Positions 20,298 to 41,079 of a DNA stretch of 64,000 bases are shown here, in pieces. Below the pieces are notes generated by a model. That model saw nothing but the letters and a program-made list of their open reading frames with translations, did no database searches and was not told the origin of the DNA. Made by a program: the position numbers and the translations under genes. The DNA comes from Rhizobium jaguaris. GTDB taxonomy: Bacteria > Pseudomonadota > Alphaproteobacteria > Rhizobiales > Rhizobiaceae. Location of the stretch: contig NZ_CP032694.1 of assembly GCF_003627755.1 (NCBI RefSeq), positions 487,501 through 551,500 of the forward strand. The letters are read 5' to 3'. Position 1 is the first letter of the stretch. Each line of letters begins with the position of its first letter.

Positions 20298-20311
20298 TAA
20301 TTTCTGCCAAC
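20298..20311 (+). repeat. Left copy of the 14 bp target-site duplication (TAATTTCTGCCAAC)
   Basis: TAATTTCTGCCAAC, identical to 41066-41079 and in the same orientation. It abuts the first G of the left terminal inverted repeat exactly. The bases immediately outside differ (G on the left, A on the right), so the duplication is 14 bp. Confidence 0.93.
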
Positions 20312-20336
20312 GGGGTAAGGAGATACAAATAAAAAA
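20312..20336 (+). repeat. Left terminal inverted repeat of the casposon-like element
   Basis: Begins GGGGTAAGGAGATAC, then A, then AATAAAAAA. The right end read inward is the same except G at position 16. Similarity continues for a few bases (GCCA) after a one-base A-tract difference. Confidence 0.92.
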
Positions 20337-20967
20337 AGCCACTCGTGAGCGGGATCACATACGCTGGATCTCACGCAACTAAAAAGAGCATCGCTGAGAA
20401 GAGCGAAGAATGGCTCAATTCTCCATCGGCAAACATCCAAGTGATTCAACGCCTCCGTGTCCGCAAAGTGCGGTGTACGAAGAGGTGACTGCCATTTCGT
20501 ACACACGATGGCTTGCGGTCACCAGTAGCACGAAGCGACGGCTCGGCTCCGTTGACCGTGCCGCTGTCCGAAAGGAACACGCGGCAGAATGTGGTGTACG
20601 AAGATGACGATAGAGGCTTACAGATAGCGAAACGCGTACCCATGCCGGCCGCCGCTGCGGTATACCCTTGCGGACACTGGCCCGTACCCCGTCTCTGCAT
20701 CATCCGCCAGATCGTACAGCCGCGCCATACGAGCTTAGACGCTGCGGGGCATAATGTGTTGCAAGAACGGAGGCCGACATCCATGGGGGAAACGCCTGCG
20801 CGAGGCGACTTAGATACGCCCTCGTTAAAGTATTCAGTTTTCGCGATCCGAGTATCGTGGAAATCCCCCAAGCGAGTAGAGAGTCTACATCGCAACCGCT
20901 TGCCGAATCAAACCAATGCGTGTGTATTCGCCTTGCCCAACAATGAATGCCGCAAGTAAGAGAAATC
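20337..20967. other. Left subterminal region without a convincing gene
   Basis: About 630 bp between the left end and the NACHT start. Open frames here are overlapping and have no family resemblance or ribosome sites. It contains three copies of GTGTACGA: 20473-20480, 20594-20601 and an inverted copy at 20497-20504. Two of these lie within a shared 12-mer GGTGTACGAAGA. These could be regulator or integrase sites, or the promoter zone of the NACHT gene. Confidence 0.5.
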
Positions 20968-23900
20968 ATGCCGACGTCCGGTCCCCGCCTCCCTGCCCTT
21001 CCGACCCTTAGTGAAATCCTTCCCGATGGAACGGAAGGAGGAAAGGAATTCGGCCGAATTATTGATCTTCTTCTGTTCAACGAATGGCGAGGTGAAGGAA
21101 ACAAGTTTCAACCACTGGACGATTCCGCTGGAGACTTTCGCGGACTAGATAGTTATCGCTATGGCCGTCGCGGCAACAAAATAACGGGCTACCAGTACAA
21201 ATTTTATAGGTCTCCACTGAGCAGTCAGCACAGAAGCCTTATAGCAGCCGCGATCGAGCAGGCAGCTGAGAATTCCGAGAGTAAAATTTCGACGTATGTT
21301 CTTGTAACACCTGATGACCTGACGAACTCTGGAAAGCGAAAAGAAGGCGGCGATATCGCTTGGTTCGAAGCTCTGCGGGAAAAGTATCGATCCCGATTTG
21401 AGATCGAGCATATTGGCCATACAAAAATTATCGCAATGTTTTTAAGGGCTAGGCATCTTTGCCTTTTCTATTACCCATCTCTGGTTCCTCTCGGAGATGC
21501 GAGAAGAAAGACAATCCAGGAAGTCAGAGTACAATATGACGAGAACATGCGACGTAGATTCGGTCGCATCGAATTTGTAGGGATGTCCGTCTACAAAGAA
21601 GAAGCCTCTCGTCGGGTACCGTTGGAAAATATCTACATACCCTTATCCCTCGTGACTGAAGCTTCACCTGAGGAAAATGACGACACGCCCCGCATTGAGC
21701 CGGTTTCATTGATTGCTCCTGGCAAGAAATCGATTGTGCTTGGCGATCCCGGCTCCGGAAAATCCACACTTGTTTCATTTCTCGCATTAGTCGGCATCAC
21801 TCCCGCACTTCAAAAACGGTGCGCAGGAGCAGCGGACGATCGCCTTCCAATTGTCGTAACCCTGAGACGGTATGCTGACGAAATAAAGACGCGGAAGAAC
21901 TTGTCCCTCATAGATTATATCGTCGAAAGCGTTCAAGCGGACTTCAATATAGGTGCAGCGGACAAGAATTTTTTCGAAGCTTACATTGAAAGTGGGCGGG
22001 CAATAATTTTCTTCGACGGGCTCGATGAGCTTCCCGGCCCGCAGTTCAAGGGGTTAATGCGGCGAAGAATCGATTCCTTTTGCACCAGCTACCCTATAAA
22101 TACCGCAATAGTGACTTCGCGTATTGTCGGCTACGAGGCAGACGTTCGTTTCGACGCACCATATCGCCACTTTCGGGTTGCAAAACTTCGCTTGACCGAA
22201 ATTGAAGAATTTGTATCAGATTGGTACGGGGAGCGGATAAAAGAGGAAGTAGAACGCAGCAGAAATATCGCGGATCTTGTCAAGGTAATTAACAATCCGG
22301 ACAACGACGCGATAAGAGATCTTTCTAAAAACCCTCTACTACTAACAATTGTTACTCTTGTTCACAGGATAGACGCGGTTCTACCTGATCAAAGAGTTGT
22401 TCTATATCAAAAATGCACAGAAACTCTCCTCAACACTTGGAATAAAGCGAAAAAGCAGGATGACGAGCCGATAAAAGGCCGTATCGAACAACGTAATCGG
22501 TTAAGGGTTGAGGCGATTGCCTACTGGATGCATAGGAATAGCCTCCAGGCGAAAGGTCGAGCGGTTGCGCCGCACAGCGAGATAGTCAAGTTCCTTACGG
22601 AGCATATCGAAAGCAAAGAAAAGAAGCGCGACAAAGACGAACCGTCTGAAGATCAGGCGGAAGAGTTTTTTACTTTTGTGAGATCATCAGCAGGGCTGAT
22701 GATCGAAGCAGGTGATGGCCTCTACAGCTTTATCCATCTAACATTTCAAGAATACCTTTCAGCTACATATCTCACAACCTACGGCGAGGTCGGCGGAGCA
22801 CTTTCTATTTGGAATGAGCTGAACGGTGATCTGGAGAACCCTCGATGGCGAGAGGTTGTTCGCTTGCTGGTCGCTAGTCTTAAATCGGCCGCAGCCCAAG
22901 CGTTCTTTGTCGAGAAACTATGTGAAGCCAATCTCCAGAATCCTTCCCGTGATTGCACGCTGCTGCTGGTTGGGCTTTTACGGGATGGCATCGAACCAGC
23001 AGAGGAAAAGGCTGAACAGATTTGTCTTCAAGTATTTGACATACTTATGAAGACGGAGTCGCCTGATGATATTCGAACGATAAATACTGCGGTTAGATCT
23101 TGGACTCTCAAGGAGCATTCGAACCTTGAAACTGCCAAGTCCGTCTTCAAGCGAATATTCCACGACGCCTCACCGATAGACAAGCTAACGCTAGCCTTGA
23201 TTAACCAGAGCGCAGAGCTTGGGCCTCTCGATACAGAACTTCGCGCCGCCCTAGATTATGGCAGCCACAGATTCGTCGAACCCCTTCTATTTGGGCCAGA
23301 AGGTACTAAGCCTGCTTCCCCGATTTGGGGCGAGATGTATCTCAAACAGACGCTTGATGCATTTCAAGATCCTGACTCGAACGCGGCGTCGGCCATAGGC
23401 CTGGGAATATCAATCTTGCTCGACCCCACTGAGGTAGCGGAAAGGCTACTAAGCCGTAGTCTAAGCCTTCTAAGCAGCATTGGACGAGGCCCACATCGCG
23501 ACTACACAATGAATCTGGTCGCACTGGCTGGGGAGACAAACCTTCACCCATCACTTCGAGAGGCCCTAGCGTATTGCATCAACCCCACAAATGGATACGA
23601 AGAGCGCGTCGAACGAGGGCAACTGATTGAAGAGTTCTTCCACCGTTGGCTAAGTCACGTTCCGCAATTGAAACGTCGCGGCGACGAAAATACCCTGAGT
23701 GAAGCCGTACGACAGCGATTGCGCTTTTTCTACAGGAAGCCAGGAAGCAGAGCTGCGCTCCCCGGAACGCCCCAAACTGGCAAGCCCAGGCGAACACGCG
23801 AAATGGCGTTGATACGACGCTCGTTGAAGACGGTAAACCTTGATGCTGGGATTTATACACGCATGATCTTGGCATCCGACGTGATGCGGGAAAATATTGT

Positions 23901-24402
23901 CCCATCATTTGTCAAAGAAATGAACCTAACACCACCAGGCCATTGGGAAGAAACTCTGAGGGCGACACTAAGTGCGCTGGTTCCGCAGGCTATTGGTCGG
24001 TATTTCGACTACGAGGAGTGGCGATCCCTTACAGCGCGCTTGTCTACAAATCTTGCAACAGAAGATGATTTTAACTGGGCTTGTTGGTTAATATTGGTGG
24101 ATGTATGGGTCCGAGCAAATCGCGCTGCGTCAACTGACGCCCCTACCGGACTGGAAGATCTTATCAGCGTCTCCAGAGAATGCCGCCACGATCCTCTCCA
24201 GTTTGCTCTAGCATTTAGGGATATGTACATGGGTAACGAGGCAGCGCTCGGTAGAGCCGTGGAGCTTTGTGAAGCACAGGATTCCTACGCGTATAAAATG
24301 CTAGTATCTGCCGGCTGGCCAGACTGGTTTACTGATGAAACCTCCCTCTTCGAAAGAGGATCGGTCAAATCTCGAAAGAAGACTGGGCGTCGAAATCCAT
24401 AA
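20968..24402 (+). CDS. NACHT-type STAND NTPase with N-terminal PD-(D/E)XK-like nuclease domain (probable anti-phage bNACHT)
   Basis: 1144 aa from the ATG at 20968, which has AAGTAAGAG in front; an ATG at 20947 has no ribosome site. The first 110 residues look like a restriction-endonuclease fold: KEFGRIID, then DFRGLDSY, then GYQYKFYR, giving an E...D...Q-x-K pattern. The central NACHT ATPase has Walker A GDPGSGKST (about 259-267), Walker B IIFFDGLDE (about 346-354) and NPLLLTIVTL. FIHLTFQEYLSA near residue 588 is the hallmark after the winged-helix region. The remaining ~550 residues are helical and likely form the sensor. Bacterial NACHT proteins defend against phage by sensing infection and activating the attached effector; here that would be DNA cleavage. 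Defence function is inferred. Confidence 0.85.
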   Translation: MPTSGPRLPALPTLSEILPDGTEGGKEFGRIIDLLLFNEWRGEGNKFQPLDDSAGDFRGLDSYRYGRRGNKITGYQYKFYRSPLSSQHRSLIAAAIEQAAENSESKISTYVLVTPDDLTNSGKRKEGGDIAWFEALREKYRSRFEIEHIGHTKIIAMFLRARHLCLFYYPSLVPLGDARRKTIQEVRVQYDENMRRRFGRIEFVGMSVYKEEASRRVPLENIYIPLSLVTEASPEENDDTPRIEPVSLIAPGKKSIVLGDPGSGKSTLVSFLALVGITPALQKRCAGAADDRLPIVVTLRRYADEIKTRKNLSLIDYIVESVQADFNIGAADKNFFEAYIESGRAIIFFDGLDELPGPQFKGLMRRRIDSFCTSYPINTAIVTSRIVGYEADVRFDAPYRHFRVAKLRLTEIEEFVSDWYGERIKEEVERSRNIADLVKVINNPDNDAIRDLSKNPLLLTIVTLVHRIDAVLPDQRVVLYQKCTETLLNTWNKAKKQDDEPIKGRIEQRNRLRVEAIAYWMHRNSLQAKGRAVAPHSEIVKFLTEHIESKEKKRDKDEPSEDQAEEFFTFVRSSAGLMIEAGDGLYSFIHLTFQEYLSATYLTTYGEVGGALSIWNELNGDLENPRWREVVRLLVASLKSAAAQAFFVEKLCEANLQNPSRDCTLLLVGLLRDGIEPAEEKAEQICLQVFDILMKTESPDDIRTINTAVRSWTLKEHSNLETAKSVFKRIFHDASPIDKLTLALINQSAELGPLDTELRAALDYGSHRFVEPLLFGPEGTKPASPIWGEMYLKQTLDAFQDPDSNAASAIGLGISILLDPTEVAERLLSRSLSLLSSIGRGPHRDYTMNLVALAGETNLHPSLREALAYCINPTNGYEERVERGQLIEEFFHRWLSHVPQLKRRGDENTLSEAVRQRLRFFYRKPGSRAALPGTPQTGKPRRTREMALIRRSLKTVNLDAGIYTRMILASDVMRENIVPSFVKEMNLTPPGHWEETLRATLSALVPQAIGRYFDYEEWRSLTARLSTNLATEDDFNWACWLILVDVWVRANRAASTDAPTGLEDLISVSRECRHDPLQFALAFRDMYMGNEAALGRAVELCEAQDSYAYKMLVSAGWPDWFTDETSLFERGSVKSRKKTGRRNP

Positions 24403-25079: not shown

Positions 25080-26198
25080 TCAAAAATGGATCTTTTCTTC
25101 GATCGGCTCGCGCGGCATCCCGCACACAACAAGCGCCACATATCGAGCCAATTGCGGGTTTAGCAGAACAGTCCCATCATTTCCGATGGTAAAATCGTCA
25201 CCTGAAAACACGTTGCTGCGAACAAAATGGAAGATTTGGTAATCGATCTGTGCCCGTTCCAGTTCGATCAAATCGAGCAAAAATGAATTTCGATTGGGCT
25301 GGCTCTCATGCAAAATGCCGATCGTCGGATCAAATCCTTCTGAAATCGCCTGAATTAACAACTCGCTCTCTGCAACCTGATATGCATAGTTCAATAGCGC
25401 GTTTATGGGGTGATGAGCACGCCGATTCCCGTTGATCACAAGAGGCGAATTTCGCTGTTCGAACGCCTTCCAATGATCCGGAATGAATTGCCGGCTTTTT
25501 CCCTTCCAAGCCGTTGTCACGCCGCGCCACGCTCTAAAATAGGCGGCGGCGCAATTTGCTTCTAACATGCGCAAACCGGGAACCGACGCCGGGGGCGCAT
25601 GGGAAAGGGAATTTAGACAAATCGCCAGAAAATCATTTGCAGCCTGCCAAGCTTCATTTTGGAAATTCATATTTTGCAGGGTTAACAACGAATATTCCAA
25701 TTTCCGGGCTATTAGCGCGATGCAGAATTGAAGCCGTCTTTCCCGGCTATCATGGGTTTCCCGCTGCCAAAGAACATTTTCTAATTTTGCTGAATAGCCA
25801 GCAGTTGTCGTCGAGCTAATAATCTCGCCTTGCCAATTTAGATGAACAAGGTCGATATTTTGCTCCTTCAACCACGACAGCACGTGAAAGGAAATTGAGC
25901 CCGAACAATCGAGAAAAATGAACCGCGACGGCAGCGATAAGTCACCCGGAAAAAACCGTATGATCTCCTGCTTCTGCGGATAATGGGTGAAGCCGTTTTT
26001 CACTAAAAGGGTGTTGCGCTCGATGCGCAAAGACACGCCGTGGCCGGAAAGAATAAGTGGCTGCTCAGTCCGACGCCTTGACGGTCTAAATTTTTTCAAT
26101 TTCTGAGCCTGCTTCAACCATACATCAGAACGCGGTTGCCATTCATCTGGGGGCTGTTTCTCTACCTGCTCTGGCAAGTTTTTCTTCGGGTTCCTCAT
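25080..26198 (-). CDS. cas1: Solo Cas1 integrase (candidate casposase)
   Basis: 372 aa. The N-terminal beta domain (about 45-135) contains LSGHGVSLRIERNTLLVKNG and FLDCSGSISFHVLSWLKEQN. The C-terminal helical catalytic domain keeps the Cas1 metal-binding residues: Glu213 in GLRMLEANCAA, His297 in PTIGILHES and Asp309 in SFLLDLIELE. HPINALLNYAYQVAESELL and SEGFDP are further family signatures. Residues 1-45 are a basic, low-complexity extension. There is no Cas2 neighbour and no CRISPR array; the gene lies inside an element with inverted ends and a 14 bp target duplication. It probably integrates the element by the Cas1 strand-transfer reaction. Its ATG overlaps the stop of a small upstream frame (ATGA) and lacks a good ribosome site. 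Confidence 0.88.
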   Translation of the reverse strand: MRNPKKNLPEQVEKQPPDEWQPRSDVWLKQAQKLKKFRPSRRRTEQPLILSGHGVSLRIERNTLLVKNGFTHYPQKQEIIRFFPGDLSLPSRFIFLDCSGSISFHVLSWLKEQNIDLVHLNWQGEIISSTTTAGYSAKLENVLWQRETHDSRERRLQFCIALIARKLEYSLLTLQNMNFQNEAWQAANDFLAICLNSLSHAPPASVPGLRMLEANCAAAYFRAWRGVTTAWKGKSRQFIPDHWKAFEQRNSPLVINGNRRAHHPINALLNYAYQVAESELLIQAISEGFDPTIGILHESQPNRNSFLLDLIELERAQIDYQIFHFVRSNVFSGDDFTIGNDGTVLLNPQLARYVALVVCGMPREPIEEKIHF

Positions 26199-26422
26199 TT
26201 CAATAAGCTACCACAACGCCTGGGTATTTTGAATCCCGGGCCTGAAATAAACATTTGAAAATAATATATTTTTCTCCCCATCCCAACGTATTTTTTAACC
26301 ATTTTCAAGCCGAACTCATTGGCACTGAACCCATCGATATGGGACATTGCTTGGGGGCGTTTTCGCGGTTTATATGAGTTGCCCGTTTCCGGAAGAATTT
26401 GAATCGCCTTCCGTATTTTCAT
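26195..26422 (-). CDS. Possible small basic protein translationally coupled to cas1
   Basis: 75 aa (MKIRKAIQIL... to ...RRCGSLLK), rich in Lys/Arg, no recognised family. It ends with the ATGA overlap that starts cas1; since cas1 has no clear ribosome site, coupling would explain its translation. Against it: the frame has no ribosome site itself, and its ATG shares a CATG with the divergent gene at 26421, so both being real is awkward. The span is A+T-rich and could instead be the cas1 promoter. Confidence 0.35.
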   Translation of the reverse strand: MKIRKAIQILPETGNSYKPRKRPQAMSHIDGFSANEFGLKMVKKYVGMGRKIYYFQMFISGPGFKIPRRCGSLLK

Positions 26423-26711
26423 GGCTGTGGTCGACAAGAAAATGAGCGCCAAAGATGATTGGCTTAATGGCGAGCCGATAGAGTCCGCTTGGTGGACTGT
26501 ACTGTCCCCGCGACAGAAGCAATCCTATCGGCGTACCCACTCGGACTCCAGCCACCTTGCCCAACAACGTCTGGCTTTCTTGACCATTTGCGATTTGATA
26601 GTCGAGGGCGTTGTAATTGCTACCGGCAAATTGGTGAAATCAGACGGAAAACCCAGCAATGAGATAGCCTACGTGGGGTCAAAATATTTCAAAAATATCG
26701 AATTATTCTGA
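26421..26711 (+). pseudogene. Unknown cargo gene, 3' end cut by IS3
   Basis: 96-codon frame (an internal ATG at 26442 begins MSAKDDWLNGEPIESAWWTV). Its stop codon TGA is the first three bases of the IS3 inverted repeat at 26709, so the natural C-terminus is missing. No known domain is recognised. Divergent from the cas1 side of the element. Confidence 0.5.
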
Positions 26712-26771
26712 CGTGCCACTGCGAATTTCCTCCAGAATGGATTAGAGTCCGGCCCATTAAAGGACGGACGC

Positions 26772-27038
26772 ATGAAGAAGCAGCGATTTACGGAAGAGCA
26801 GATTATTGCGGTGTTGAAGGAGCAGGAAGCTGGCGCGAAGGCGGCCGACCTTTGCCGCAAGCACGGAATTTCAGAAGCAACGTTTTACAACTGGAAAGCC
26901 AAATATGGCGGCATGGAGGTCTCCGAGGCGAAGCGGCTGAAGGCGCTTGAGGATGAGAACGCCAGGCTGAAGAAGCTGCTCGCCGAACAGATGCTTGATG
27001 CGGCCGCACTCCGCGAGCTTCTCCAAAAAAAATGGTAG
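26772..27038 (+). CDS. IS3 transposase OrfA (helix-turn-helix)
   Basis: 88 aa. [20 protein letters not shown] and [20 protein letters not shown] form the IS3 OrfA DNA-binding helix-turn-helix, followed by a leucine-zipper-like [15 protein letters not shown]. It ends in an A8 run at 27025-27032 that could promote the -1 frameshift making the OrfAB transposase. Confidence 0.95.
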
Positions 27039-27961
27039 GGCCTGCCGCCAAGCGTGAAGCCGTCACGCACCTGAAGACCGTCATGGGGCTTTCGGAACGG
27101 CGGGCCTGCCAGATCATATCTGCCGATCGCAAGACGATCCGTTACCAGTCGAACCGACCGCCGGAGACCGAGTTGCGAGCGAAGCTGCGCGAGTTGGCTA
27201 ATGAGCGGCGGCGTTTCGGCTACCGTCGACTGTTCGTCCTGCTTCGGCGGGAGGGAGAGCCGTCCGGCGTCAATCGCATCTATCGGCTGTATCGCGAGGA
27301 AGGGCTTTCAGTACGAAAGCGGAAGGCCCGACGCCGTGCCGTCGGCACGCGTGCTCCGATCCTGGTCGAAGCGAAGGCCAATGCCCGCTGGTCGCTGGAT
27401 TTCGTCCACGACCAGTTTGCCTGCGGACGGAGGTTTCGCGTGCTCAACATCGTCGATGATGTGACGCGTGAATGCCTGGCAGCAATTCCGGACACCTCAA
27501 TCTCCGGCCGCCGTGTCGCACGCGAGCTGACGACGCTGATCGAACGACGTGGCAAGCCCGGAATGATTGTCTCCGATAACGGCACCGAACTCACCTCGAA
27601 TGCCATTCTTGCCTGGTCGAAGGATCACAAGGTCGAGTGGCATTACATCGCGCCGGGAAAGCCCATGCAAAACGGCTATGTCGAGAGCTTCAACGGGCGA
27701 ATGCGTGACGAACTGCTCAACGAAAGCCTGTTCTTCGGCCTCGATCATGCCCGAAGCGCCATCGCTGAATGGGCCGCCGATTATAATCATTTCCGGCCGC
27801 ACTCATCGCTCGGATATCAGACCCCGGCAAGCTATGCCGGGTCCATCGCCGCAACCGGCTCCAACGCTGCGCAAGATGAAAGCTTCGCGCTTCCGCCGGT
27901 TGCTCACACCGCGCCACTTGGCGTATTCAAAACCGCCGGGGCTCTAATCGCCGCTGGATGA
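27032..27961 (+). CDS. IS3 transposase OrfB (DDE integrase core)
   Basis: 309 aa. DDE catalytic domain with WSLDFVHD (first Asp), [18 protein letters not shown] (second Asp) and [14 protein letters not shown] (Glu), plus the C-terminal [15 protein letters not shown] motif. The frame overlaps orfA by 7 bp, and the functional transposase is probably the frameshifted fusion. Full length and apparently intact. Confidence 0.95.
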
Positions 27962-27965
27962 AAGT

Positions 27966-28181
27966 TCAGTGGCACGTCAGCCTCACACCGCCTTTGGGCT
28001 TGTCGAGATCCGGAATTGCGACATTATCGGCCTTTCGTGCAGCGTCTCTCTCCCGCTGTCTCCGTTGCATTTCCGCATTTGTGTAGGGCGTAGCACCGTG
28101 TTCGCGTTTTTCTCGTTTTCGTATTTCCCCCGCCGAAGCTGGAATGATTTTCAGCGATTTACGAATTGCTTCTAGGTCCAT
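27966..28181 (-). pseudogene. Unknown cargo gene, 3' end cut by IS3
   Basis: Begins MDLEAIRKSLKIIPASAG at the ATG 28181 with a strong ribosome site GGGGAG at 7-8 nt. The frame runs into the IS3 right end at 27980, and its last residues and stop come from the IS. The visible part is highly charged (IRKREKREHGA, MQRRQRERDAAR) and ends with DLDKPKGGVR. Not a recognised family. IS21 sits 64 bp upstream of its start. Confidence 0.5.
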
Positions 28182-28886
28182 GTATATCTCCCCTGTGCGT
28201 GCAGTGCTGCGCAGAACGTTTACTTTTGGCGAAGGTGTATTTGAGTGCAAATTCCGAGGCAATCCGCCCCCTGATTCCGAAATGATGTCGCCCCCCAATT
28301 CCGAGAATTAGTCGCCCCCTTGTTCCGAGATGATGCCGCCCCCTACGGAGGGATGTGGCAAGGGTGTTCTGCCGGTGTGAAGTTCCTTCCGTCAATGATG
28401 ACAAGGAAGGAACGGGATGCCTGCGGAGAGACTGGAGATGCGGCGTGTCCGCGAGATACTGAGATATCGGTCCGAGCAAGGGCTGGGCCACAAATCGATT
28501 GCGGTTCGGGTCGGAGCAGCAGCCTCGACGGTGCGCGAGACGCTGCGACGGGCGGCGGCTGCGGGGCTTTCGTGGCCGTTGGATGATGACGTGAGTGATG
28601 CCGTCCTGGAGGCGGCGCTCTACCGTGCGGCTGGGACGAAGACGGGTCATCGTCGCGCACCGGAGCCTGACTGGGTGCAAGTCCATCGCGAGCTCAAGCG
28701 CAAGCACGTGACGCTGCAAATTCTCTGGGACGAATACATAAGCCGTTATCCCGATGGTTACCGCTACAGCCGATATTGTGACCTCTATCGCGGCTGGGCG
28801 TTGAAGCTGCCGGTGACGATGCGGCAGGATCATATGGCGGGCGACAAATTGTTCGTCGACTACGCCGGTGACCTTGCCCCCAAGTT

Positions 28887-31993: not shown

Positions 31994-32181
31994 CACCCCG
32001 CCTAAATGGACTGACAACAATCATCGCCTGCAGACCCCACTAAACAGGGGGCGAGATCATCCCGGAATCAAGGGGCGCAATCATCTCGGAACAAAGGGGC
32101 GGCTTCATCGGAATCGGCATTTGAGGAAGTTATTAAGCGCCGGCCGCTTGGTATTTCGGGCGGAAACGCAACCGCAATACC

Positions 32182-32757: not shown

Positions 32758-32880
32758 GCGGAAATTGTAACCTTCAAAAGTCGAGCGGCCCTATTCAGTA
32801 TAGGCATATTTATAACCGTATACGGGTAAAAATAAACCTATTAATGGCGAAAAATGCATCATGTGACGTAGACGGTCAGT

Positions 32881-33117
32881 ATGATTACGTCACGTCAAAT
32901 ACGGGCCGCGAGAGCGCTCCTTGGTTGGTCCCAGCAGGAGCTGGCAGACAAAGCTATCGTGTCACTGAATGCGGTGGTGCGCATCGAGACAGGAAAAGTG
33001 GACCCGCGAATAAGCACGCTCAATGCGATTGAAACTGCGCTTCGCAAGGCGGGTGTCGAATTTCTGGCTGCTGGCACGAAAGGCGAAGGCGTTCGATTAA
33101 ACACGGCTGATGGTTGA
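32881..33117 (+). CDS. XRE family helix-turn-helix regulator
   Basis: 78 aa single-domain protein: MITSRQIRAARALLGWSQQELADKA, then VSLNAVVRIETGK, the classic Xre/Cro helix-turn-helix, with a short C-terminal tail. It could regulate cargo genes of the element. Divergent from the exported protein at 32757. Confidence 0.8.
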   Translation: MITSRQIRAARALLGWSQQELADKAIVSLNAVVRIETGKVDPRISTLNAIETALRKAGVEFLAAGTKGEGVRLNTADG

Positions 33118-33223
33118 TGTGAGTGATTTCGAGCCGCAGGGCGGTCAGCGAAGATGAACCTGGTTACAATCCAGGTATTAATCCGCGCTCCCACGCTTAG
33201 CCGGCACTTATTCTGCTGGAATT

Positions 33224-34042
33224 CTAACTGGTCGGTCGGAGTGCCCTAAGCAATTGGGAGGCGATCGCGAAATAAGACGTGTAAAAGAGGTCCGCGGAAT
33301 CATACGGATTTGGGTGGGCTTGTATTGCTTCAACCATTCCTTCTTGGCTCTGGATGATCGCCGGAATAATATTTTGTCGATCTGCGGCGAGAACGATACC
33401 TGCTTTTTGAAGGAACTTGTCGGCTTCAGTTTTAAATTTGGTGCGCTGCTCGGGCGTGACTTTCGGGAAAAACTGTAGATAGAACATGAGGTGCACCGAC
33501 TTTTTCAATGAATCGCGAAGCGGACTGTCGGCTGGCGTCCAATAGAACGTCGCCAAGTTCCTAACGAAGTCATCATTATATTCGGGGGGCAGATTTGCGA
33601 TTGCCTGCTTGCGCGTCTTGTCATTCAAGACCTTGGCTAGCAGCTCTCCTAGAGAGTCGCCGCCTTTGATTGTGGTAGAAAGGGTGGCGTTTTGCGGAGA
33701 CCAAAATTTAGCTTCGTCAAATGATATGTGAATATCGAGCAACCCGGCTAACCACGGCGTCCAGATCTTCTCCAGTTCTTCGTCAAAATCTTTTCTGATT
33801 TTGCGACCTAATTTAAGAAGATTTTCAAGATCTTCTATCAGGGAAGCGACACGGGGGATATTGAACTTCTCGAACTCATTGTAGCGGACAAGATATGCTT
33901 TGTGACGCTCCAATGACCGTGAAAAGATATAGCCGGCCAGGGCGACAATGAGCGCAAGCAGACCTTTATCCAATAGCGTATTGATGATCGGGACTTGTTG
34001 GCTCGCCGTTAAGGCATCCCACCACTGCCAAAATCCGCCCAT
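33224..34042 (-). CDS. Hypothetical membrane-anchored protein (cargo)
   Basis: 272 aa. One N-terminal transmembrane helix (about 23-44, LLDKGLLALIVALAGYIFS) is followed by a charged, mostly helical cytoplasmic domain with a coiled-coil-like segment (ASLIEDLENLLKLGRKIRKDFDEELEKI). No family is recognised. Composition is A+T-richer than the chromosome, as in the rest of the element. Confidence 0.6.
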   Translation of the reverse strand: MGGFWQWWDALTASQQVPIINTLLDKGLLALIVALAGYIFSRSLERHKAYLVRYNEFEKFNIPRVASLIEDLENLLKLGRKIRKDFDEELEKIWTPWLAGLLDIHISFDEAKFWSPQNATLSTTIKGGDSLGELLAKVLNDKTRKQAIANLPPEYNDDFVRNLATFYWTPADSPLRDSLKKSVHLMFYLQFFPKVTPEQRTKFKTEADKFLQKAGIVLAADRQNIIPAIIQSQEGMVEAIQAHPNPYDSADLFYTSYFAIASQLLRALRPTS

Positions 34043-34273
34043 GTGCTACCCCGAAAAATCGTATCAAACGACAACCACCAGGATAACACAGAGCCAGTCC
34101 AGGAAAACAGTAAGCGGCATCCTAATTGGAGTTGATCGCAATAATTCTAGGATAGATCTCCCTGAAACCGACCAGAAACTTGACAATCGCCGCAATTCGC
34201 GCAAAATTTACTTCCAATGCGGTCATCAATATTCCGGCGTTATCTCCTAACATCTTCACCTCGGGGGCAAGCA

Positions 34274-35188
34274 ATGACCAATTGTGACGCAGTGCTTCGC
34301 CAAAATGTCGAATCGTACAATGCAAATTTCTCAATATGGATGTCTTACATCAGCAGTCTTGAGAGGGACGTTACTCAAAACAAGTCATCCGCGCTGGGCA
34401 TTTCGTATGCGGGTGTAGGGCTTAACTACTCCGATGCGAAGTCGATGTCTGAGTTTGTTAGTCAACATCAAAATTACCAACTTAGTCAACAACAGAGCGA
34501 ATCCCTGCTGCGTTCGACACTATCACCAGATAGCGTACGAGCGTACATCGCCTGTATAAACAAGGACGATCCTGTAAGTATCCTGTTGCCAGATTCAGCT
34601 GTAACCGACGCTGTATTTCAGTTTAAGATTACTTGGAATCCCAATTATCGTGGGGTAAAACCTAGCGAAATGAAGGTTACGGTTACAGGCGGAACAATCG
34701 ACGGTCAAAATGAAAAGAAAATTAAATTAATTCCGCCTCAGGACAGCCCAATATTCGTCCTTGAGCGAGATAAAGGTGGATATGTGCCACTATATATCAG
34801 CGCTTACATCGATGGTCAGGCCAGTGATATTGTGTCGTTGCCTTCATTCCCAGATTTTATTGTGAAGATTCTGGCGCGGAATTCACAGGCGATTGACAGC
34901 ATACGAGACGGGCAGCACGGGACTTCCTTAGTTCAGGGCAAACTTTGCATACAGCCTACCGATGGAAACTCGAGGTTACTGCCTAATACGTTAGCTTGGG
35001 TCGGTAGCTCAGTTGGCGACCCAAATAGAGCGAGAGCCGATGTCACGACTCACGCAGCAGAGAATAGCTCCACTTTAGTCTGCGGACACTGGTGGAATAG
35101 CTCCGGGGCAAACGAGGAGTCTAATCGACTTACAGGTTACTTCGTTGTGCAAGAAGTGTATACAGACCCAGTGCAAAAACCAGCATAG
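34274..35188 (+). CDS. Hypothetical protein (cargo), unrecognised
   Basis: 304 aa from the ATG at 34274, preceded by CGGGGGC; an upstream frame start at 34217 seems less likely. The N-terminal third is helical (VESYNANFSIWMSYISSLE) and ends in a short Cys-containing motif AYIACINKD. The C-terminal two thirds look like beta-sandwich segments (FQFKITWNPNYRGVKPSEMK, LYISAYIDG). No signal peptide is evident. Function unknown. Confidence 0.55.
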   Translation: MTNCDAVLRQNVESYNANFSIWMSYISSLERDVTQNKSSALGISYAGVGLNYSDAKSMSEFVSQHQNYQLSQQQSESLLRSTLSPDSVRAYIACINKDDPVSILLPDSAVTDAVFQFKITWNPNYRGVKPSEMKVTVTGGTIDGQNEKKIKLIPPQDSPIFVLERDKGGYVPLYISAYIDGQASDIVSLPSFPDFIVKILARNSQAIDSIRDGQHGTSLVQGKLCIQPTDGNSRLLPNTLAWVGSSVGDPNRARADVTTHAAENSSTLVCGHWWNSSGANEESNRLTGYFVVQEVYTDPVQKPA

Positions 35189-35519: not shown

Positions 35520-35816
35520 ATGACAACTACTCATGTTCTTGAAATCCTTCTTATCATAGCAGGGATAGTAGGTATCTTTGGCTGGATGAATGCGCATGCA
35601 CTGCGTATACAAAAGCAAGCGCTGCGAGCGTCGCTGGACGAAGTACAGTCAGAGTCAACCACCATACGAGCGGAACTGGCGGAGTCCCAGGCTTTGACGG
35701 CGGTCCTCGAGGCTAAGCCTAAGGGAATTGGCGTGGACTCAACGATAGCTCTGAAGTGAGCGCAATGAATGGCCCACGGCTTTTGTGATTGACTAAAATA
35801 GGTTTCTGGCTCTCGG

Positions 35817-36380
35817 TCAGAACTTCTGCTTTGCCCGCTTCGGCATAAAATAGGTTCGGATATTGACGAGTGCTTCGGCGACGGCAGCAGCATCCTGGTG
35901 GGTCGCTTTCCGTTTTATCTCGCCGAGCTTGCGGAGTGGCGCGATGATATCCCCAGTGACGGCATGACCTCGAAGGACAGGCCGCCACAGCTTCGGCGCA
36001 TACCCTGTTCCCAGCAAAAAGCAGAGGTCCCAATCAAATGGATCAAGGGTCTGATCATCGATCTGGGTGAACCTTGGCCGGTGGTCTTTCGGTCTCTCGG
36101 AAAGGCTTGCAGATATCCGATTATACTCTGCAACGATCGTCTGCACGGCCCGATGTTCGGTTGTTTCCATCGGCAGGTTTAGGGCATCCGGGCCGGTCAG
36201 TTCCGGGATCCATTGCCGTGGGTCGATGAACTTCGGGCCGATGATGAGGGCCGTAAGATAACCATCGAGACTGCTCATTGACCAGATAGGCGATGGCGGA
36301 CGACGTCTCCTGATAAAGGCTTCGAACGCTTCGTCATCGAGCTTCGGTCGCGGCGTCATCTCCTGGCTGTTCTGTGTCAT
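35817..36380 (-). CDS. UPF0149 (YgfB/YecA-like) family protein, IS66 passenger
   Basis: 187 aa from the ATG at 36380, which overlaps the tnpC stop (ATGA). LDDEAFEAFIRRRRPPSPIWSMSSLDGYLTAL and PRQWIPELTG, then FDWDLCFLLGTGYAPK, match the UPF0149/YecA family. The SEC-C metal-binding tail seen in some members is absent. It is inside the IS ends and coupled to the transposase, so it travels with the IS; its job is unknown. Confidence 0.82.
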   Translation of the reverse strand: MTQNSQEMTPRPKLDDEAFEAFIRRRRPPSPIWSMSSLDGYLTALIIGPKFIDPRQWIPELTGPDALNLPMETTEHRAVQTIVAEYNRISASLSERPKDHRPRFTQIDDQTLDPFDWDLCFLLGTGYAPKLWRPVLRGHAVTGDIIAPLRKLGEIKRKATHQDAAAVAEALVNIRTYFMPKRAKQKF

Positions 36381-37984
36381 GCCGCTTGTCGCTCCTGCTG
36401 TGTCATCGCTTCGCGCTCCGCCTTCCAGGCCCAAGGCAAAAGGCTCTCCATCTCGTTGGCTTTCACTTTGCCGGAGATGATGCGCTCCAGCACATCGGCA
36501 AGCCAGACGTCGGGGTCCACGCCGTTAAGCTTTGCCGTGTTCACGAGCGATGCCAGGACCGCGAAGGTCTTGCCACCCCGCTCGTTGCCCACGAATAATG
36601 AGTTCTTTCTCGTCAAGGCCACGGATTTCATTGAACGCTCGACGACATTGGAGTCCACCTCGATCCGGCCATCCTCCAGGAAGGCTGTCAGTCCGCTCCA
36701 GTGGTTGAGCATGTAAGTGACTGCCTTGCCAAGTGCCGATTTCGACGACACCTCGTCGCTCAGTTCGGTGAGATGGACCTTCAGTTCTCTCATGATGGGA
36801 GCTGCCTCACGACGCCTGCCGCTAAGCCGGGTATCTTCATCTTCCCCTCGTAGTTTTGCTTCGATGCGATAGATTTCGGCAATCCTGGCAAGGATCGACA
36901 AGGCCTCCGAAGAGCCGGTCAGTTTGACGACATCAACGAACTTTCGCCGTGCATGGGCGAGGCAGAAGGCCAGCCGCATGGGGGCAACGTTGCTCTTGCC
37001 GCGTCGTTTGACCATGGTTTTATAGGCTTGGTATCCATCAACCTGAAGCACGCCGGCAAACGACGACAGTTGCCCCTCAACCTCGCGAGCGCTGCGGCTT
37101 TCGGCAAAAGTATAGGCCACCGCCGGTGGCGCCGGACCATTCCAGGGGCGGTCGTCAACTGCTTGCGCCCATAACTGGCAAAGCTTGGTTCGTTTGCGCC
37201 CCGGATCGAGGCGCGGAAGTGGCGTCTCGTCACAGAACACCCTTGGCTGCGAGCGGATGAAGGCGGTGAGTGCATCATAGAGAAGTTCGAGCCACCAGGC
37301 GACCCGCGTCACCCAGGCACCGAGTGTGCCGCGATCGATGATGACGCCGCAGGAGGCCAGCATCTGGGCCTGGCGATTGAGCGGGAGATGCCAGGCAAAC
37401 TTCGAAACAGCGACATGCGCGGCAAACGCCGTGGTCACCATGCCACCGTCCATCACGCGCGCTGGTGCCGGCGCCTGCACAACAACGTTTTCGCAAGCCC
37501 GGCATGCATAGCGCGGCCGGATCGTCCGTTTCACCCTGACAACCGCAGGCACGATGTCGAGCGCCTCGCTGACATCAGCGCCGATGCAATGAAGTTCGAA
37601 CGAACAGCAGGGACAAGTCTTGCTCTCCGGCTCGATGACCTCGTCATAACGCGGAAGGTGTTTGGGCAAGCGGCCGATATTGCGGGCTGGCGATCTCCGT
37701 GCCTGCGTTTTGTCGTCATCGACTGGCGCGACATCGTCATTGGCAGCAACGGGAATGTCGCTTAGATCGCCAAGATCGAGCATTGCCTGCGTCGGATCGA
37801 GCACCGTCATCTTCTCCGATTTCGTCCCGAAGAGTTGGCGCTCAAGGAAGGCCACGCGCGCCTTGAGGTCGGCATTCTCTTCGTTGAGCGAGAGAATGAT
37901 CCGGGTCAATTGCGCAGCATCCTGGGGCAAGGGATCGGGTCGAAGCGGCATGACAGACCCTACCATATGAGCCTGAATCTTCAA
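36377..37984 (-). CDS. tnpC: IS66 transposase TnpC
   Basis: 535 aa. Coiled-coil N-terminus (NEENADLKARVAFLERQLFG), a zinc-binding segment CPCCSFELHCIG with CRACE, and the DDE domain with RVFCDETPLP (Asp), LQVDGYQAYK (Asp) and EVDSNVVERSMK (Glu). Ends with the IS66 C-terminal segment LLPWAWK. Apparently intact. Confidence 0.96.
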   Translation of the reverse strand: MKIQAHMVGSVMPLRPDPLPQDAAQLTRIILSLNEENADLKARVAFLERQLFGTKSEKMTVLDPTQAMLDLGDLSDIPVAANDDVAPVDDDKTQARRSPARNIGRLPKHLPRYDEVIEPESKTCPCCSFELHCIGADVSEALDIVPAVVRVKRTIRPRYACRACENVVVQAPAPARVMDGGMVTTAFAAHVAVSKFAWHLPLNRQAQMLASCGVIIDRGTLGAWVTRVAWWLELLYDALTAFIRSQPRVFCDETPLPRLDPGRKRTKLCQLWAQAVDDRPWNGPAPPAVAYTFAESRSAREVEGQLSSFAGVLQVDGYQAYKTMVKRRGKSNVAPMRLAFCLAHARRKFVDVVKLTGSSEALSILARIAEIYRIEAKLRGEDEDTRLSGRRREAAPIMRELKVHLTELSDEVSSKSALGKAVTYMLNHWSGLTAFLEDGRIEVDSNVVERSMKSVALTRKNSLFVGNERGGKTFAVLASLVNTAKLNGVDPDVWLADVLERIISGKVKANEMESLLPWAWKAEREAMTQQERQAA

Positions 37985-37999
37985 GCAAAACCAATAGGA

Positions 38000-38356
38000 T
38001 CAGCCTGCTTTTGAGGGCCTTCTCACCGCGTTTCGTTTGACCCGCGTCCAGTCAATGCCGGCCAGCAAAAGCGAGAACTCCTGGGCACTCATCTGCATCG
38101 CGCCATCGCAGATCGGCGGCCAAACGAACTTTCCGCTTTCCAACCACTTTGTTGCCAGGATCATGCCTGATCCGTCCCAGTAAATGCAGCGAAGGCGATC
38201 GAGGCGCTTGGCGCGGAATACAAACACGTCGCCACAATAGGGATCGGCCGCAAGCGCTGACGCCACCAAGGCCACAAGCCCATTCATCCCGCGCCGGAAG
38301 TCGACAGGTTGCGTCGCAACCATGATCTTCGCGCCATTTGGCGAAACTCCGATCAC
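38000..38356 (-). CDS. tnpB: IS66 accessory protein TnpB
   Basis: 118 aa. IMVATQPVDFRRGMNGLVAL, GDVFVFRAKRLDRLR and LLLAGIDWTRVK are the IS66 TnpB signatures. It overlaps tnpA by 4 bp and precedes tnpC by 15 bp. It is required together with TnpA for IS66 transposition in characterised elements. Confidence 0.96.
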   Translation of the reverse strand: MIGVSPNGAKIMVATQPVDFRRGMNGLVALVASALAADPYCGDVFVFRAKRLDRLRCIYWDGSGMILATKWLESGKFVWPPICDGAMQMSAQEFSLLLAGIDWTRVKRNAVRRPSKAG

Positions 38357-38823
38357 CGGCGCCCTCGCAACGCCGCTACCATCGCCTGCGCCAGTTCAGG
38401 CGCCACCGAGCCGATGACCGTCATGCGTGCGCCCGCAATCTCGATCTCAATTCGGCCAGCGAGAACCTCCGGGGCATTCGATGGCGAGCCTTCGTGTCGT
38501 GCGCCATCCCCAACCACTGTCACCGGCACGAACACGGCAGGTGGCAAACTGGTCTTTGCCGACCGTTGAGAGGTTAGTCCGGCTTCCCGTCGCCACACAT
38601 TCAGCAAGCCGCGATTGACGCCCCAGCGCCTCGCAACAGCCGAAATGTTCACTTCAGGTTCTGCGCTCTCCGCGAGAATCCGCGCCTTCTCCTCGTCAGT
38701 CCAATTCCGCCGCTGCCGCCGACCGGTGATCATCTCGATCCGCCGATACTTTCCCTCATGCCTGGCTTCATGCATGCCTTCATCCATGACTTCAAGCATG
38801 GCATCAGCGCGATCTCCAACCAT
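38353..38823 (-). CDS. tnpA: IS66 accessory protein TnpA (helix-turn-helix)
   Basis: 156 aa if started at 38823. RRNWTDEEKARILAESAEP and VARRWGVNRGLLNVWRREAG form the helix-turn-helix. A start at the internal MITGRRQRR (about residue 31) is possible. Ends LAQAMVAALRGRR, overlapping tnpB. Confidence 0.92.
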   Translation of the reverse strand: MVGDRADAMLEVMDEGMHEARHEGKYRRIEMITGRRQRRNWTDEEKARILAESAEPEVNISAVARRWGVNRGLLNVWRREAGLTSQRSAKTSLPPAVFVPVTVVGDGARHEGSPSNAPEVLAGRIEIEIAGARMTVIGSVAPELAQAMVAALRGRR

Positions 38824-39501
38824 CCCGGTCCACTCCTATCAATGATAGAGCTTATCTCGCGGCCTCATTCACAAAAGAAAAGGTGGGCTGTTCGTCGCGC
38901 TCACGCTCTGAAAATCTACCTTCCAGAACTGCGGCGAGCGATGGAGGATCAAATCAACGCACTAAATACAGCCAAAGATATCTCCAAGGAATTTGATAAT
39001 ATCGCATTAGCAGAAATTTCTAAATCAAGATATATCCCTAGACTCGAGCGCTTTGGGCGGTACCATAGTACCCTTATCAATTTAGATGCAAAAATATCAG
39101 AGATAATATCAATATTAAACGACGATCGATTATACCTAGAAAAGTTGATTGACCTATTAGATACAGGACGCCTTAACGCTAGTATGGGATACTTAGAGAT
39201 TGAGGCCATGGAATCTGTGGAGAAGTCATTTAGCCGTGAAGATCAGGACCGGATCTATGAGAATGTCCTTTTGCGGTCTCAAAAGGCTGAAGTCGAATTT
39301 GGTCGAAAGTTCAAAGATGCAATGGAGACGGCTGCTGAACGTCTTCGCGCAGCAGAACCTAGGAATCCGAGAGTTTTGAAAGCAGCTCAGAAGCCTGAGA
39401 AAGGCTAGAGAGCCGCGGGCTCTGATGTGCGAGACTGCCACGAGTCGTCACTGCGGCTGCCTTTGAAGGTCGCGGCACCCCCCTAGATCGAAACCCTCGC
39501 T

Positions 39502-39524
39502 CGCCCAAGGAAGCATCCTGGGCG
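39502..39524 (+). terminator. Stem-loop terminator after the split cargo gene
   Basis: CGCCCAAGGA / TCCTGGGCG with one bulge and an AGCA loop, followed by a moderately T-rich run (GTTTCGCGTTT). It lies about 95 bp past the stop at 39408. Confidence 0.5.
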
Positions 39525-39566
39525 GTTTCGCGTTTGCAGGTTGTGTCCAGCTTTCACTTTCGCCAA

Positions 39567-40235: not shown

Positions 40236-40616
40236 TCAATCTAAAAATTGTACTGCCACCTGTAGCTGAGCCTTCACCACATCCCTAAACCGCTGGTAGG
40301 CGCCATAGCTCGCAGGATCCGTCCCATGCGCGCCAATAGGACAACTTCCTGCCAAACTGCTGATTAATGTGTCCCATTGACTCAGACCAGAATCGATCTG
40401 TTGTTTGGCATCCGGTATCCGACCTTGTGCCAAGGCCACTCTTGCGTTGTCGAACGCTTTTATCGCCGCGTTACCGGGCTGCTGCCTCGATTGCCAGTCC
40501 AATGGGGGGCCTCCGTTCTTACCGAATCCGCAACCCTGGCTCATTGACCCCATTTGATCTTGGAAATGAGGGATTGCGTCATCCAGGATCGCATTTACTT
40601 TGTCGACGGCATTCAT
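40236..40616 (-). CDS. Small hypothetical protein (cargo)
   Basis: 126 aa starting MNAVDKVNAILDDAIPHFQD after GGAGAGGAG, 7 nt from the ATG. Largely helical, with FDNARVALAQGRIPDAKQQI and YGAYQRFRDVVKAQLQ. The ribosome site closely matches that of the gene at 39839. No family recognised; cytosolic by appearance. Confidence 0.6.
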   Translation of the reverse strand: MNAVDKVNAILDDAIPHFQDQMGSMSQGCGFGKNGGPPLDWQSRQQPGNAAIKAFDNARVALAQGRIPDAKQQIDSGLSQWDTLISSLAGSCPIGAHGTDPASYGAYQRFRDVVKAQLQVAVQFLD

Positions 40617-41040
40617 TGGTAGTCTCCTCTCCTTTGGCTACACTAATGATATGTATAGGCGTCGCGGCCATTCGCGTCGCCGAATGCAACGTTGACGGAA
40701 AAAGAACTCCACGAAGGATCAAGATCGACGAGTGTGACGAGTTAGTGCTTTGGGAGCGTGCGATATACAAGCCATCGAGGCCCCCATGCCTTGACTTCCT
40801 CATAGACAACCCCAAGCGATGACTCAAAATTGAGGGTCTTTCTGAGGATAATCGCCGACTATAGCGGAAGTACGGTCCACAGTCTAGAGTTGATTTAGCG
40901 ATCACGAGGCGCGTGTTCACCCAACTCTGAAGCAACCAAACATGAATAGAGTTGATGGCGGGCTGCCATGAGATGACCATCCGCTTGCAGCCGCGCGCAT
41001 CAGGGAACATCTCGAGATCGACGGAGCTTTCCAGCTTGGC
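40617..41040. other. Right subterminal region of the element, no firm gene
   Basis: About 420 bp. A 58-codon plus frame at 40646-40822 and a minus frame at 40579-41010 exist. Neither has a ribosome site or recognisable family; the minus frame may preserve a gene fragment near the right end. Confidence 0.35.
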
Positions 41041-41065
41041 TTTTTTATTCGTATCTCCTTACCCC
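41041..41065 (-). repeat. Right terminal inverted repeat of the casposon-like element
   Basis: Read on the minus strand it begins GGGGTAAGGAGATAC then GAATAAAAAA, differing from the left end at one of 25 positions. It abuts the right 14 bp target copy. Confidence 0.92.
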
Positions 41066-41079
41066 TAATTTCTGCCAAC
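41066..41079 (+). repeat. Right copy of the 14 bp target-site duplication
   Basis: TAATTTCTGCCAAC, identical to 20298-20311. The comM start lies 62 bp downstream, so the insertion is in the comM upstream region. Confidence 0.93.

What the first reader, a model, noticed from the sequence alone, without database searches (positions are those of the whole stretch)
20298..41079. A 20.75 kb casposon-like transposon between gshB and comM
The segment has 25 bp terminal inverted repeats (one mismatch) and a perfect 14 bp target duplication, both read directly. No tyrosine or serine integrase or Tn7-type machinery is present, and the nested IS elements each have their own ends. The remaining integrase is a solo Cas1. 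Inverted ends, a 14-15 bp duplication and a Cas1 homologue define casposons, which are known mostly from archaea and few bacteria and usually carry a family B polymerase. A polymerase-free version in a Rhizobium would be a new branch.
Basis: partly seen in the sequence, partly recalled or inferred. Interest (0 to 1): 0.97.

Follow-up and report, generated by a model that had tools for sequence, protein, structure and literature searches.

The report
Decayed Cas1 transposon in a rhizobium
This 20.8-kb segment of a Rhizobium-like chromosome is a decayed casposon, a mobile DNA element likely moved by its own Cas1, the enzyme family that CRISPR immunity uses to store memories; it lacks the DNA polymerase that nearly all its examined relatives carry, likely because a deletion next to an insertion sequence removed it, and it matters because its relatives show where these rare elements land, six of them just before the repair gene recA.

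Summary
In detail: 25-bp inverted ends (one mismatch), a perfect 14-bp target duplication, an intact solo Cas1, and an unbroken site in 26 other loci of the genus. Of 81 related Cas1 loci, 30 have inverted ends plus a duplication of at least 12 bp around the cas1, against 0 of 241 mismatched pairings. Relatives carry a family B polymerase (38 of 39 loci with 9 kb on both sides). The M. mazei casposase is the best PDB match by sequence and fold, and its three catalytic residues are present. So this is a casposon lineage, of the bacterial sort already reported from Henriciella. A primary polymerase-free branch is not supported: what looks like the truncated neighbour gene of cas1 ends at an IS3 copy that lacks the usual 4-bp duplication, where the polymerase operon should be; the polymerase was most likely lost. 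Around it: a rhizobial lineage with its own end sequence and NACHT cargo; six of six locatable near relatives sit a fixed 5-6 bp from a LexA-type box before recA (the window's element is beside such a box too, but at another distance); and, in passing, a casposon that carries a complete CRISPR-Cas9 system.

The parts
20298..20311 (+). target duplication, left copy (TAATTTCTGCCAAC)
   Evidence: unbroken site in 26 other loci
20312..20336 (+). left terminal inverted repeat, 25 bp
   Evidence: the left 361 bp are 84% identical to an end in G012
20947..24402 (+). cargo: 1151-aa NACHT ATPase, probable defence protein (function inferred)
   Evidence: PF05729 E=1.9e-7; weak Avs2 match, E=2.6e-4
25080..26198 (-). 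casposase: solo Cas1, 372 aa, catalytic E213/H297/E312 present
26421..26708 (+). probable truncated, divergent gene next to cas1, resembling the ~227-aa gene at this place in other casposons; cut off by the IS3
   Evidence: weak but collinear and in the expected place: E=0.075 in a search over ten sequences, alignment
26709..27979 (+). IS3-family element without target duplication; probable scar of the deletion that removed the polymerase operon
   Evidence: ends by matches in 272 plasmid records; 4 of 4 other copies examined have 4-bp duplications, this one has none
27980..28245 (-). fragment of a small gene between IS3 and IS21, no credible relative among the compared elements
28246..32119 (.). 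IS21-family element (with a nested IS3-family copy), 6-bp duplication TTTGAG
32182..33194 (-). cargo genes (191 and 99 aa) shared with an element in G012 (89% DNA identity over 920 bp)
33224..34042 (-). cargo, 272 aa, no family found
34217..35188 (+). cargo, 323 aa, no family found above cut-off
35756..38904 (-). IS66-family element with a UPF0149 passenger gene, 8-bp duplication GCTCTGAA
38758..39408 (+). cargo, 216 aa (called start overlaps the IS66 end), no family found
40236..40616 (-). cargo, 126 aa, weak TPR-like match below cut-off
41041..41065 (-). right terminal inverted repeat, 25 bp
41066..41079 (+). target duplication, right copy
20270..20284 (+). LexA-type box GTTC-N7-GTTC in the gshB-comM gap, 13 bp before the duplication and 27 bp before the element (that this form is the LexA box of Alphaproteobacteria is recalled, not from a call)
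   Evidence: found directly before the site in 18 of 29 empty-site loci

Best explanation
The segment is a casposon that was likely inserted between gshB and comM by its own Cas1-type casposase and that likely lost its family B polymerase operon through a deletion at an IS3 copy. Mechanism, inferred from the studied archaeal casposases: a Cas1 tetramer joins the two 3' ends of the freed element to positions 14 bp apart on opposite strands of the target, and host repair fills the gaps, giving the 14-bp duplication. Shown here: the ends, the duplication, the empty sites, the catalytic residues in an open frame, and the company that this Cas1 family keeps with such ends. Inferred: that this Cas1 did the joining, that it is still active, that the polymerase was lost rather than never there, and that the NACHT cargo defends the host. 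With the polymerase gone, copying would rest on the host replisome, so the element is predicted to be Cas1-competent but no longer self-synthesising.
For: Ends, duplication, empty sites. Related Cas1 genes: 30 of 81 loci with inverted ends plus a duplication of 12 bp or more, 0 of 241 in the control. Tree: 72 rows of this family, window included, split from 27 presumed CRISPR Cas1 and 2 PDB sequences with SH-aLRT 100. PDB: casposase 6opm is the best sequence match (108 bits, next 57) and the top three fold matches (2.5e-16 to 6e-16, next 4.5e-12). Catalytic residues map to E162/H232/E247 of that enzyme (alignment, counted by hand; PMC6977970 passages; window residues). Ends of most relatives begin GGGRTATAG, the M. 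mazei end reading GGGATATA (from 5'-TATATCCC); the window's begin GGGGTAAGG. The window's ends recur in 4 of 148 genomes of the genus, own included, one of them (G089) with a Cas1 remnant 1 kb inside. Loss of polymerase: PolB in 60 of 81 loci and in 38 of 39 with 9 kb on both sides; none found in the window or its genome; IS3 without duplication while 4 of 4 other copies have one; probable truncated neighbour gene ending at that IS3.
Against: No polymerase, HNH-like or 196-aa core gene in the element. G012 and G085 have the ends but no Cas1. The nearest full-length Cas1 relatives (63-68%) are on contigs that I could not open, so whether that subclade has a polymerase is unknown; a polymerase search listed none of their contig lengths among its best 120 of 2874 hits, which is inconclusive. 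The 148-genome polymerase blank has no positive control of its own in that call. In the tree the M. mazei casposase does not group with the bacterial ones but, on long branches, weakly with A. fulgidus CRISPR Cas1. The truncated-gene match is weak (E=0.075). Two of the 81 related loci have CRISPR arrays within their bounds (L040, where it is cargo, and L085).
Confidence: 0.84

Rival explanations
1. A primary polymerase-free casposon branch: the rhizobial lineage never had PolB, and Cas1 plus host replication suffice.
For: No PolB of this kind found in 148 genomes of the genus. Cas1-bearing, PolB-less copies exist elsewhere: L070 (6.3 kb, ends 24/25, duplication 15-17 bp) and L032.
Against: IS3 scar and probable truncated neighbour gene where the operon sits in relatives; PolB in the nearest placed casposons L016, L029, L017 and G211. 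L070 and L032 look like deletions too (a 129-aa polymerase piece in L070; a truncated neighbour gene in L032).
Confidence: 0.1
2. Cas1 is only a passenger: an unknown transposase moved the element, and cas1 is a leftover of a CRISPR system.
For: G012 and G085 ends without Cas1; the window's Cas1 lies close to IS elements.
Against: No Cas2 in the genome and no array in the window by a crude test (the rest of the genome was not tested for arrays); the same Cas1 family is flanked by such ends in 30 of 81 loci; the Cas1 resembles the casposase more than CRISPR Cas1; of 16 frames of the element put to Pfam the only recombinases are those of the IS elements.
Confidence: 0.04
3. The element is mobilised in trans by a casposase elsewhere and its own Cas1 is inactive.
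For: Cas1-less ends in G012 and G085 would need a source in trans.
Against: Only one Cas1 found in the genome; its frame is open and the catalytic residues are present.
Confidence: 0.05

Closest known systems
Family 3 (bacterial) casposons, e.g. of Henriciella marina, Nitrosomonas sp. AL212, Streptomyces albulus (Krupovic et al. 2014, PMC4046053; passages and section 7 read)
   Same: Solo Cas1, inverted ends, duplication with published median 15 nt, bacterial hosts; relatives found here include Henriciella and Hyphomonas elements
   Different: No PolB and no HNH gene in the window; ends begin GGGGTAAGG; host is a rhizobium; three IS insertions. That survey looked for cas1 together with polB, so a polB-less element could not have appeared in it
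Methanosarcina mazei casposase and casposon (Hickman et al. 2020, PMC6977970; passages read)
   Same: Best PDB match; same catalytic E/H/E; 14-bp duplication; related end sequence GGGATATA
   Different: 21-22% identity in the fold alignment; archaeal; the element described sits at a tRNA-Leu gene and has polB and HNH
CRISPR-associated Cas1 (types I-C, I-D, II)
   Same: Pfam and the general NCBIfam Cas1 model, above its cut-off
   Different: No Cas2 in the genome, far below the subtype cut-offs, other side of the tree

Membership tests
Casposon | Terminal inverted repeats | tested here: met
   25 bp, 24 matching
Casposon | Target duplication of about 14-15 bp and an empty site elsewhere | tested here: met
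   14 bp perfect; unbroken alignment across the junction in 26 of the 29 other loci examined
Casposon | Solo Cas1 (casposase), not part of CRISPR-Cas | tested here: met
   one Cas1 and no Cas2 found in the genome; tree and PDB
Casposon | Family B DNA polymerase gene ('in all casposons', PMC4046053, whose search demanded it) | tested here: not met
   not found in window or genome; read as secondary loss, so filed as a PolB-deficient derivative, not as an autonomous casposon
Family 2/3 casposons | HNH endonuclease gene | tested here: not met
   the ~125-aa cluster (24 of 32 elements; HNH-like by eye, no Pfam hit) has no match inside the element
Casposon | No tyrosine/serine recombinase or other transposase of its own | tested here: met
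   of 16 frames put to Pfam only IS3, IS21 and IS66 enzymes, inside their own ends; short frames not tested
Casposase | Catalytic E, H, E | tested here: met
   E213, H297, E312
Casposase | DNA integration activity | not testable with these tools
   needs purified protein
Family 3 clade | Cas1 groups with H. marina and Nitrosomonas AL212 casposases | tested here: inconclusive
   on one side of the tree with other Henriciella casposases; the named type sequences were not in the tree
CRISPR-Cas adaptation module | Cas2 and array | tested here: not met
   no Cas2 in the genome; no array in the window; arrays elsewhere in the genome not tested

The most novel reading that the evidence does not exclude
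Hyphomicrobiales casposons home on LexA-type operators of repair genes: in six of six relatives with a locatable end, the box before recA begins exactly 5-6 bp from the element, and where both ends are seen the duplication leaves the box whole on the recA side, sparing the gene much as archaeal casposons spare tRNA genes. The window's lineage branches from within this group and still landed beside such a box, before comM, then shed its polymerase and lives on as a Cas1-driven carrier of defence cargo.
Probability: 0.22. Interest if true: 0.82.

Novelty: new variant of a known kind. Interest (0 to 1): 0.66.

Why it matters
Casposons are the likely source of the CRISPR memory machinery, and bacterial ones are known in print from few genomes (the 2014 survey listed 19 islands and named four bacterial hosts). 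The relatives gathered here give some thirty with exact ends, which makes their target choice testable: hairpins, often terminator-like, for about half, and a LexA-type box before recA for a Hyphomicrobiales group. The window's element shows what may happen when such an element loses its polymerase but keeps its integrase, and a relative that carries a whole CRISPR-Cas9 system puts ancestor-type and descendant-type Cas1 in one mobile element.

Tried and rejected
Polymerase in the rhizobial subclade: a polymerase search to match contig lengths with those of the 63-68% Cas1 relatives; shared lengths do appear for other groups (15790, 9418, 170949), but none of theirs is among the 120 listed of 2874, so it decides nothing. 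More copies: left end against plasmids and exact end pattern in viral contigs: none; end pattern in 394 family genomes: only the own genome, with one chance match of the backward control pattern. The first genome-contig scan with the single protein found no relative. Plasmid records gave no close relative of the Cas1 (best identities under 60%). Family of G211: 2 of 12 genomes, nothing new. The first tree held rows translated in a wrong frame; rebuilt with frames chosen by HMM, dropping L064, L077, L081 and all matches under 900 bases. The 27 'order' rows are presumed, not individually shown, to be CRISPR Cas1. In one search (33 of 81 loci printed a hit) L032 and L057 (duplication of 9) are chance-like and were not counted; L026 (10-bp duplication, ends 25/25) was kept among the 32 elements used for gene content but is not among the strict 30. 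The first duplication count for IS3 copies used a wrong end word; redone. Repeats in L017 are a plain tandem, not CRISPR.
Full report
WHAT WAS CLAIMED AND WHAT IS THERE. The duplication TAATTTCTGCCAAC lies at 20298-20311 and 41066-41079 and the inverted arms just inside match at 24 of 25 positions. The element is 20,754 bp. gshB is on the left and comM on the right by Pfam. Of the element's length about 8.3 kb is later insertions: an IS3 copy (26709-27979), an IS21 (28246-32119, duplication TTTGAG) with a nested IS3-family copy, and an IS66 (35756-38904, duplication GCTCTGAA), which leaves about 12.4 kb of its own.

EMPTY SITES. A query made of the two joined flanks matched 137 of 148 genomes of the genus (own included), many only over comM. 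Thirty loci were returned and examined: one is the window's own, and 26 of the other 29 align without a break across the junction. The closest, G046, is 94% identical over query positions 181-532 and has TAATTTCTGCCACT where the window has the duplicated TAATTTCTGCCAAC. So the segment is an insertion.

THE CAS1. It is the only Cas1 found in the 8.0-Mb genome, and no Cas2 was found there (7 of 14 control genomes ring). A search of 5.8 billion proteins gave 1155 relatives, 120 listed; the nearest full-length ones besides itself are 63-68% identical and come from sources without a named organism. In the genus only G089 has another trace, a fragment of 26 residues (2 of 148 genomes, own included). 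In 397 genomes of the order 79 have a match: the own genome, G211 and G258 strongly, G408 in pieces, the other 75 weakly. A profile of 27 relatives matches the M. mazei casposase 6opm best among PDB chains (108 bits, next 57), and the AlphaFold model (mean pLDDT 74) has three chains of it on top. Through the alignment the window's E213, H297 and E312 stand where the casposase has E162, H232 and E247 (residue names from passages of PMC6977970; window residues).

ENDS TRAVEL WITH THIS CAS1. A second genome scan returned 80 loci, mostly of Alphaproteobacteria (86 found, best 80 kept), and a scan of viral contigs one more. Asking for an exact duplication of at least 12 bp flanked inside by ends matching at 11 of 15 positions or better, on opposite sides of the cas1, gave 30 of 81 loci; pairing left sides with right sides of other loci gave 0 of 241. 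Most of their ends begin GGGRTATAG. Of 39 loci with at least 9 kb on both sides 28 have such ends (L026 with a 10-bp duplication counted) and 38 have PolB. In a tree of 101 rows the 72 rows of this family, the window among them, are split from 27 presumed CRISPR Cas1 and two PDB sequences with SH-aLRT 100. The window sits with 8 proteins (100), then in a set of 19 with L016, L029, L020 and 7 more proteins (98), then in a set of 22 with G211, L017 and L068 (99). The archaeal casposase did not join the bacterial ones in this tree (long branches), so common descent of all casposases was not tested here. Two of the 81 loci hold CRISPR arrays, L040 and L085; in L040 the array is cargo (below).

RELATED ENDS IN THE GENUS. 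The window's end sequence, with up to 3 mismatches, is in 4 of 148 genomes: the own, G012 (three ends), G085 and G089 (one each); the backward control pattern matched in none. In 394 genomes drawn from the family only the own genome has it, and the backward control matches once. G089's end has a Cas1 remnant 1 kb inside, 79% identical in DNA over 133 bp. One G012 end has, 3.4 kb inside, 920 bp that are 89% identical to window 32180-33099; another is followed by a SIR2-like gene; the third lies beside a type I restriction-modification locus whose M, R and S subunits are 60%, 52% and 30% identical to those in L042. G012 and G085 have no Cas1 in their assemblies, and no second end was found near G085's. 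These are ends of kindred elements with other cargo; whether complete is unknown.

WHERE DID THE POLYMERASE GO. In 32 delimited elements (window included) one cluster is PolB: 31 of 32 have a member, L070's being only a 129-aa piece and L062's split in two; the window has none. A ~196-aa gene is in 29, an HNH-like (by eye) ~125-aa gene in 24 and a ~227-aa gene in 13. The usual order is PolB, HNH-like, 196 aa and 227 aa, divergent from cas1 (L044, L047 and others differ in layout). In the window the frame at 26403-26708, divergent from cas1, is the best of the hits for the 227-aa family (E=0.075 in a search over ten sequences; the two aligned pieces are collinear) and it stops at the IS3. Other copies of this IS, matched in 272 plasmid records, have 4-bp duplications in 4 of 4 cases examined; the window's copy has none. 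A deletion beside the IS3, taking the operon, explains all three facts. L070 and L032 show that Cas1-bearing casposons elsewhere lose PolB too. No PolB of this kind is found in 148 genomes of the genus; the tool warns that such a blank has no positive control, but tblastn with the same kind of PolB finds it in G211 and G258.

HOW IT WOULD WORK. By analogy with the studied archaeal casposases, Cas1 would bind the ends, join their 3' hydroxyls to positions 14 bp apart in the target and leave gaps that repair turns into the duplication. All these steps are inferred here. Without PolB the element would depend on host replication; an open Cas1 frame and good ends suggest it could still be integrated.

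TARGETS. Reconstructed target sites of 18 of 32 elements lie in the lowest tenth of folding energies of their surroundings, that is, in strong hairpins; several look like plain terminators by eye. The exceptions are telling. L016, L029 and G211 insert inside a GAAC-N7-GAAC box upstream of a gene that is RecA by Pfam in L016 and 81-84% identical to it in the others; L017 and L068 have one end, and G408 a relic with both duplications (13 of 14 alike by eye), at such a box before recA. In all six the box begins 5 bp (L068: 6 bp) from the element on the recA side. Five of the six are in the 22-row set around the window; G408 was too broken to place. L020, of the same set, and L076 and L090, too short for the tree, had no end found; G258, of the same order and not placed in the tree, has an end at a hairpin. 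That this box form is the alphaproteobacterial LexA operator is recalled, not from a call. The window's element lies near GTTCTTTTATTGTTC (20270-20284), found directly before the site in 18 of 29 empty-site loci. Such boxes occur 39 times in 1.37 Mb of the loci, so one within 60 bp is expected at 0.003 per site. But this was noticed afterwards; the box is 27 bp from the end and on the gshB side, so the insertion parts it from comM instead of sparing the pair; and the other five rhizobial ends have no such box nearby (nearest about 0.4 kb). It stays a lead for the window and a firm pattern for recA.

WHAT IS KNOWN. Casposons in bacteria, with Henriciella marina among the hosts, date from 2014 (PMC4046053, passages and section 7 read). 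That paper searched for cas1 together with polB and reports PolB in all; it lists insertions in intergenic sites, at tRNA genes and at aEF-2. Searches of the held open-licence library: casposon with Henriciella (2 papers), rhizobium (1, unrelated by its listing), bacteria and target site duplication (23), Alphaproteobacteria (7), non-autonomous (5), Cas9 and cargo (9), LexA (3), and a three-of-four search with terminator, palindrom and insertion site (12 of 265 listed). In the titles and abstract starts listed I saw no rhizobial casposon, no recA or LexA target and no CRISPR-bearing casposon. Besides PMC4046053 and PMC6977970 I read passages only of PMC9939771, PMC11656645 and PMC8987985.

VERDICT. 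A real insertion and a real casposon lineage, but one that has most likely lost its polymerase rather than a branch that never had one. By the strict definition it fails the PolB feature, so it is filed as a PolB-deficient casposon derivative. The wider family, its landing sites and a CRISPR-Cas9-carrying member are the more surprising results.

Noticed in passing
L192:1054-14327 (record of L040, Hyphomonadaceae bacterium UBA5336): A 13.3-kb casposon with both ends and a hairpin target duplication (CCCCGCTTTCGCGGGG) carries, besides casposase and PolB, a complete type II CRISPR locus: Cas9 (1137 aa, 581 bits to the NCBIfam Cas9 model), type II Cas1, Cas2 and an array of 18 repeats. Ancestor-type and CRISPR-type Cas1 in one mobile element; it is a MAG contig, so it should be confirmed in an isolate.
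   Followed up: partly
L016, L029, L017, L068, L127+L128 (G211), L131 (G408): Six casposons or relics sit at a GAAC-N7-GAAC box before recA, the box beginning 5-6 bp from the element.
   Followed up: yes
target sites of 32 elements, e.g. L023, L035, L038, L044, L052, L070: 18 of 32 casposon target sites are strong, often terminator-like hairpins that the insertion duplicates.
   Followed up: partly
L070:9189-15456 and L032: Two further Cas1-bearing casposons without a working-length PolB; L070 still has both ends and its duplication.
   Followed up: partly
L012 (G012:C252), L011 (G012:C90), L013 (G012:C2): Three ends of the window's type in one genome with different neighbours: type I restriction-modification beside proB, a SIR2-like gene, and porin plus sulfatase beside rplM/rpsI (porin, sulfatase, proB, rplM, rpsI named by eye).
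   Followed up: partly
window 35756-38904: The IS66 copy carries a UPF0149 (YecA-like) passenger gene whose stretch is matched in 46 rhizobial-type plasmid records and by a PADLOC candidate model.
   Followed up: no
window 43166-44287: An IS110-family transposase gene just beyond comM.
   Followed up: no
L085:13115-13996: A CRISPR-like array (repeat GTGTTCCCCACGCCCGTGGGGATGAACCG) lies about 6 kb from a distant casposase-like Cas1 in Nitrosomonas sp. Nm166; whether it is inside the element was not checked.
   Followed up: no
L096: A contig of the viral collection (IMG/VR) encodes a 39% relative of this Cas1, perhaps a casposon contig taken for a virus.
   Followed up: no
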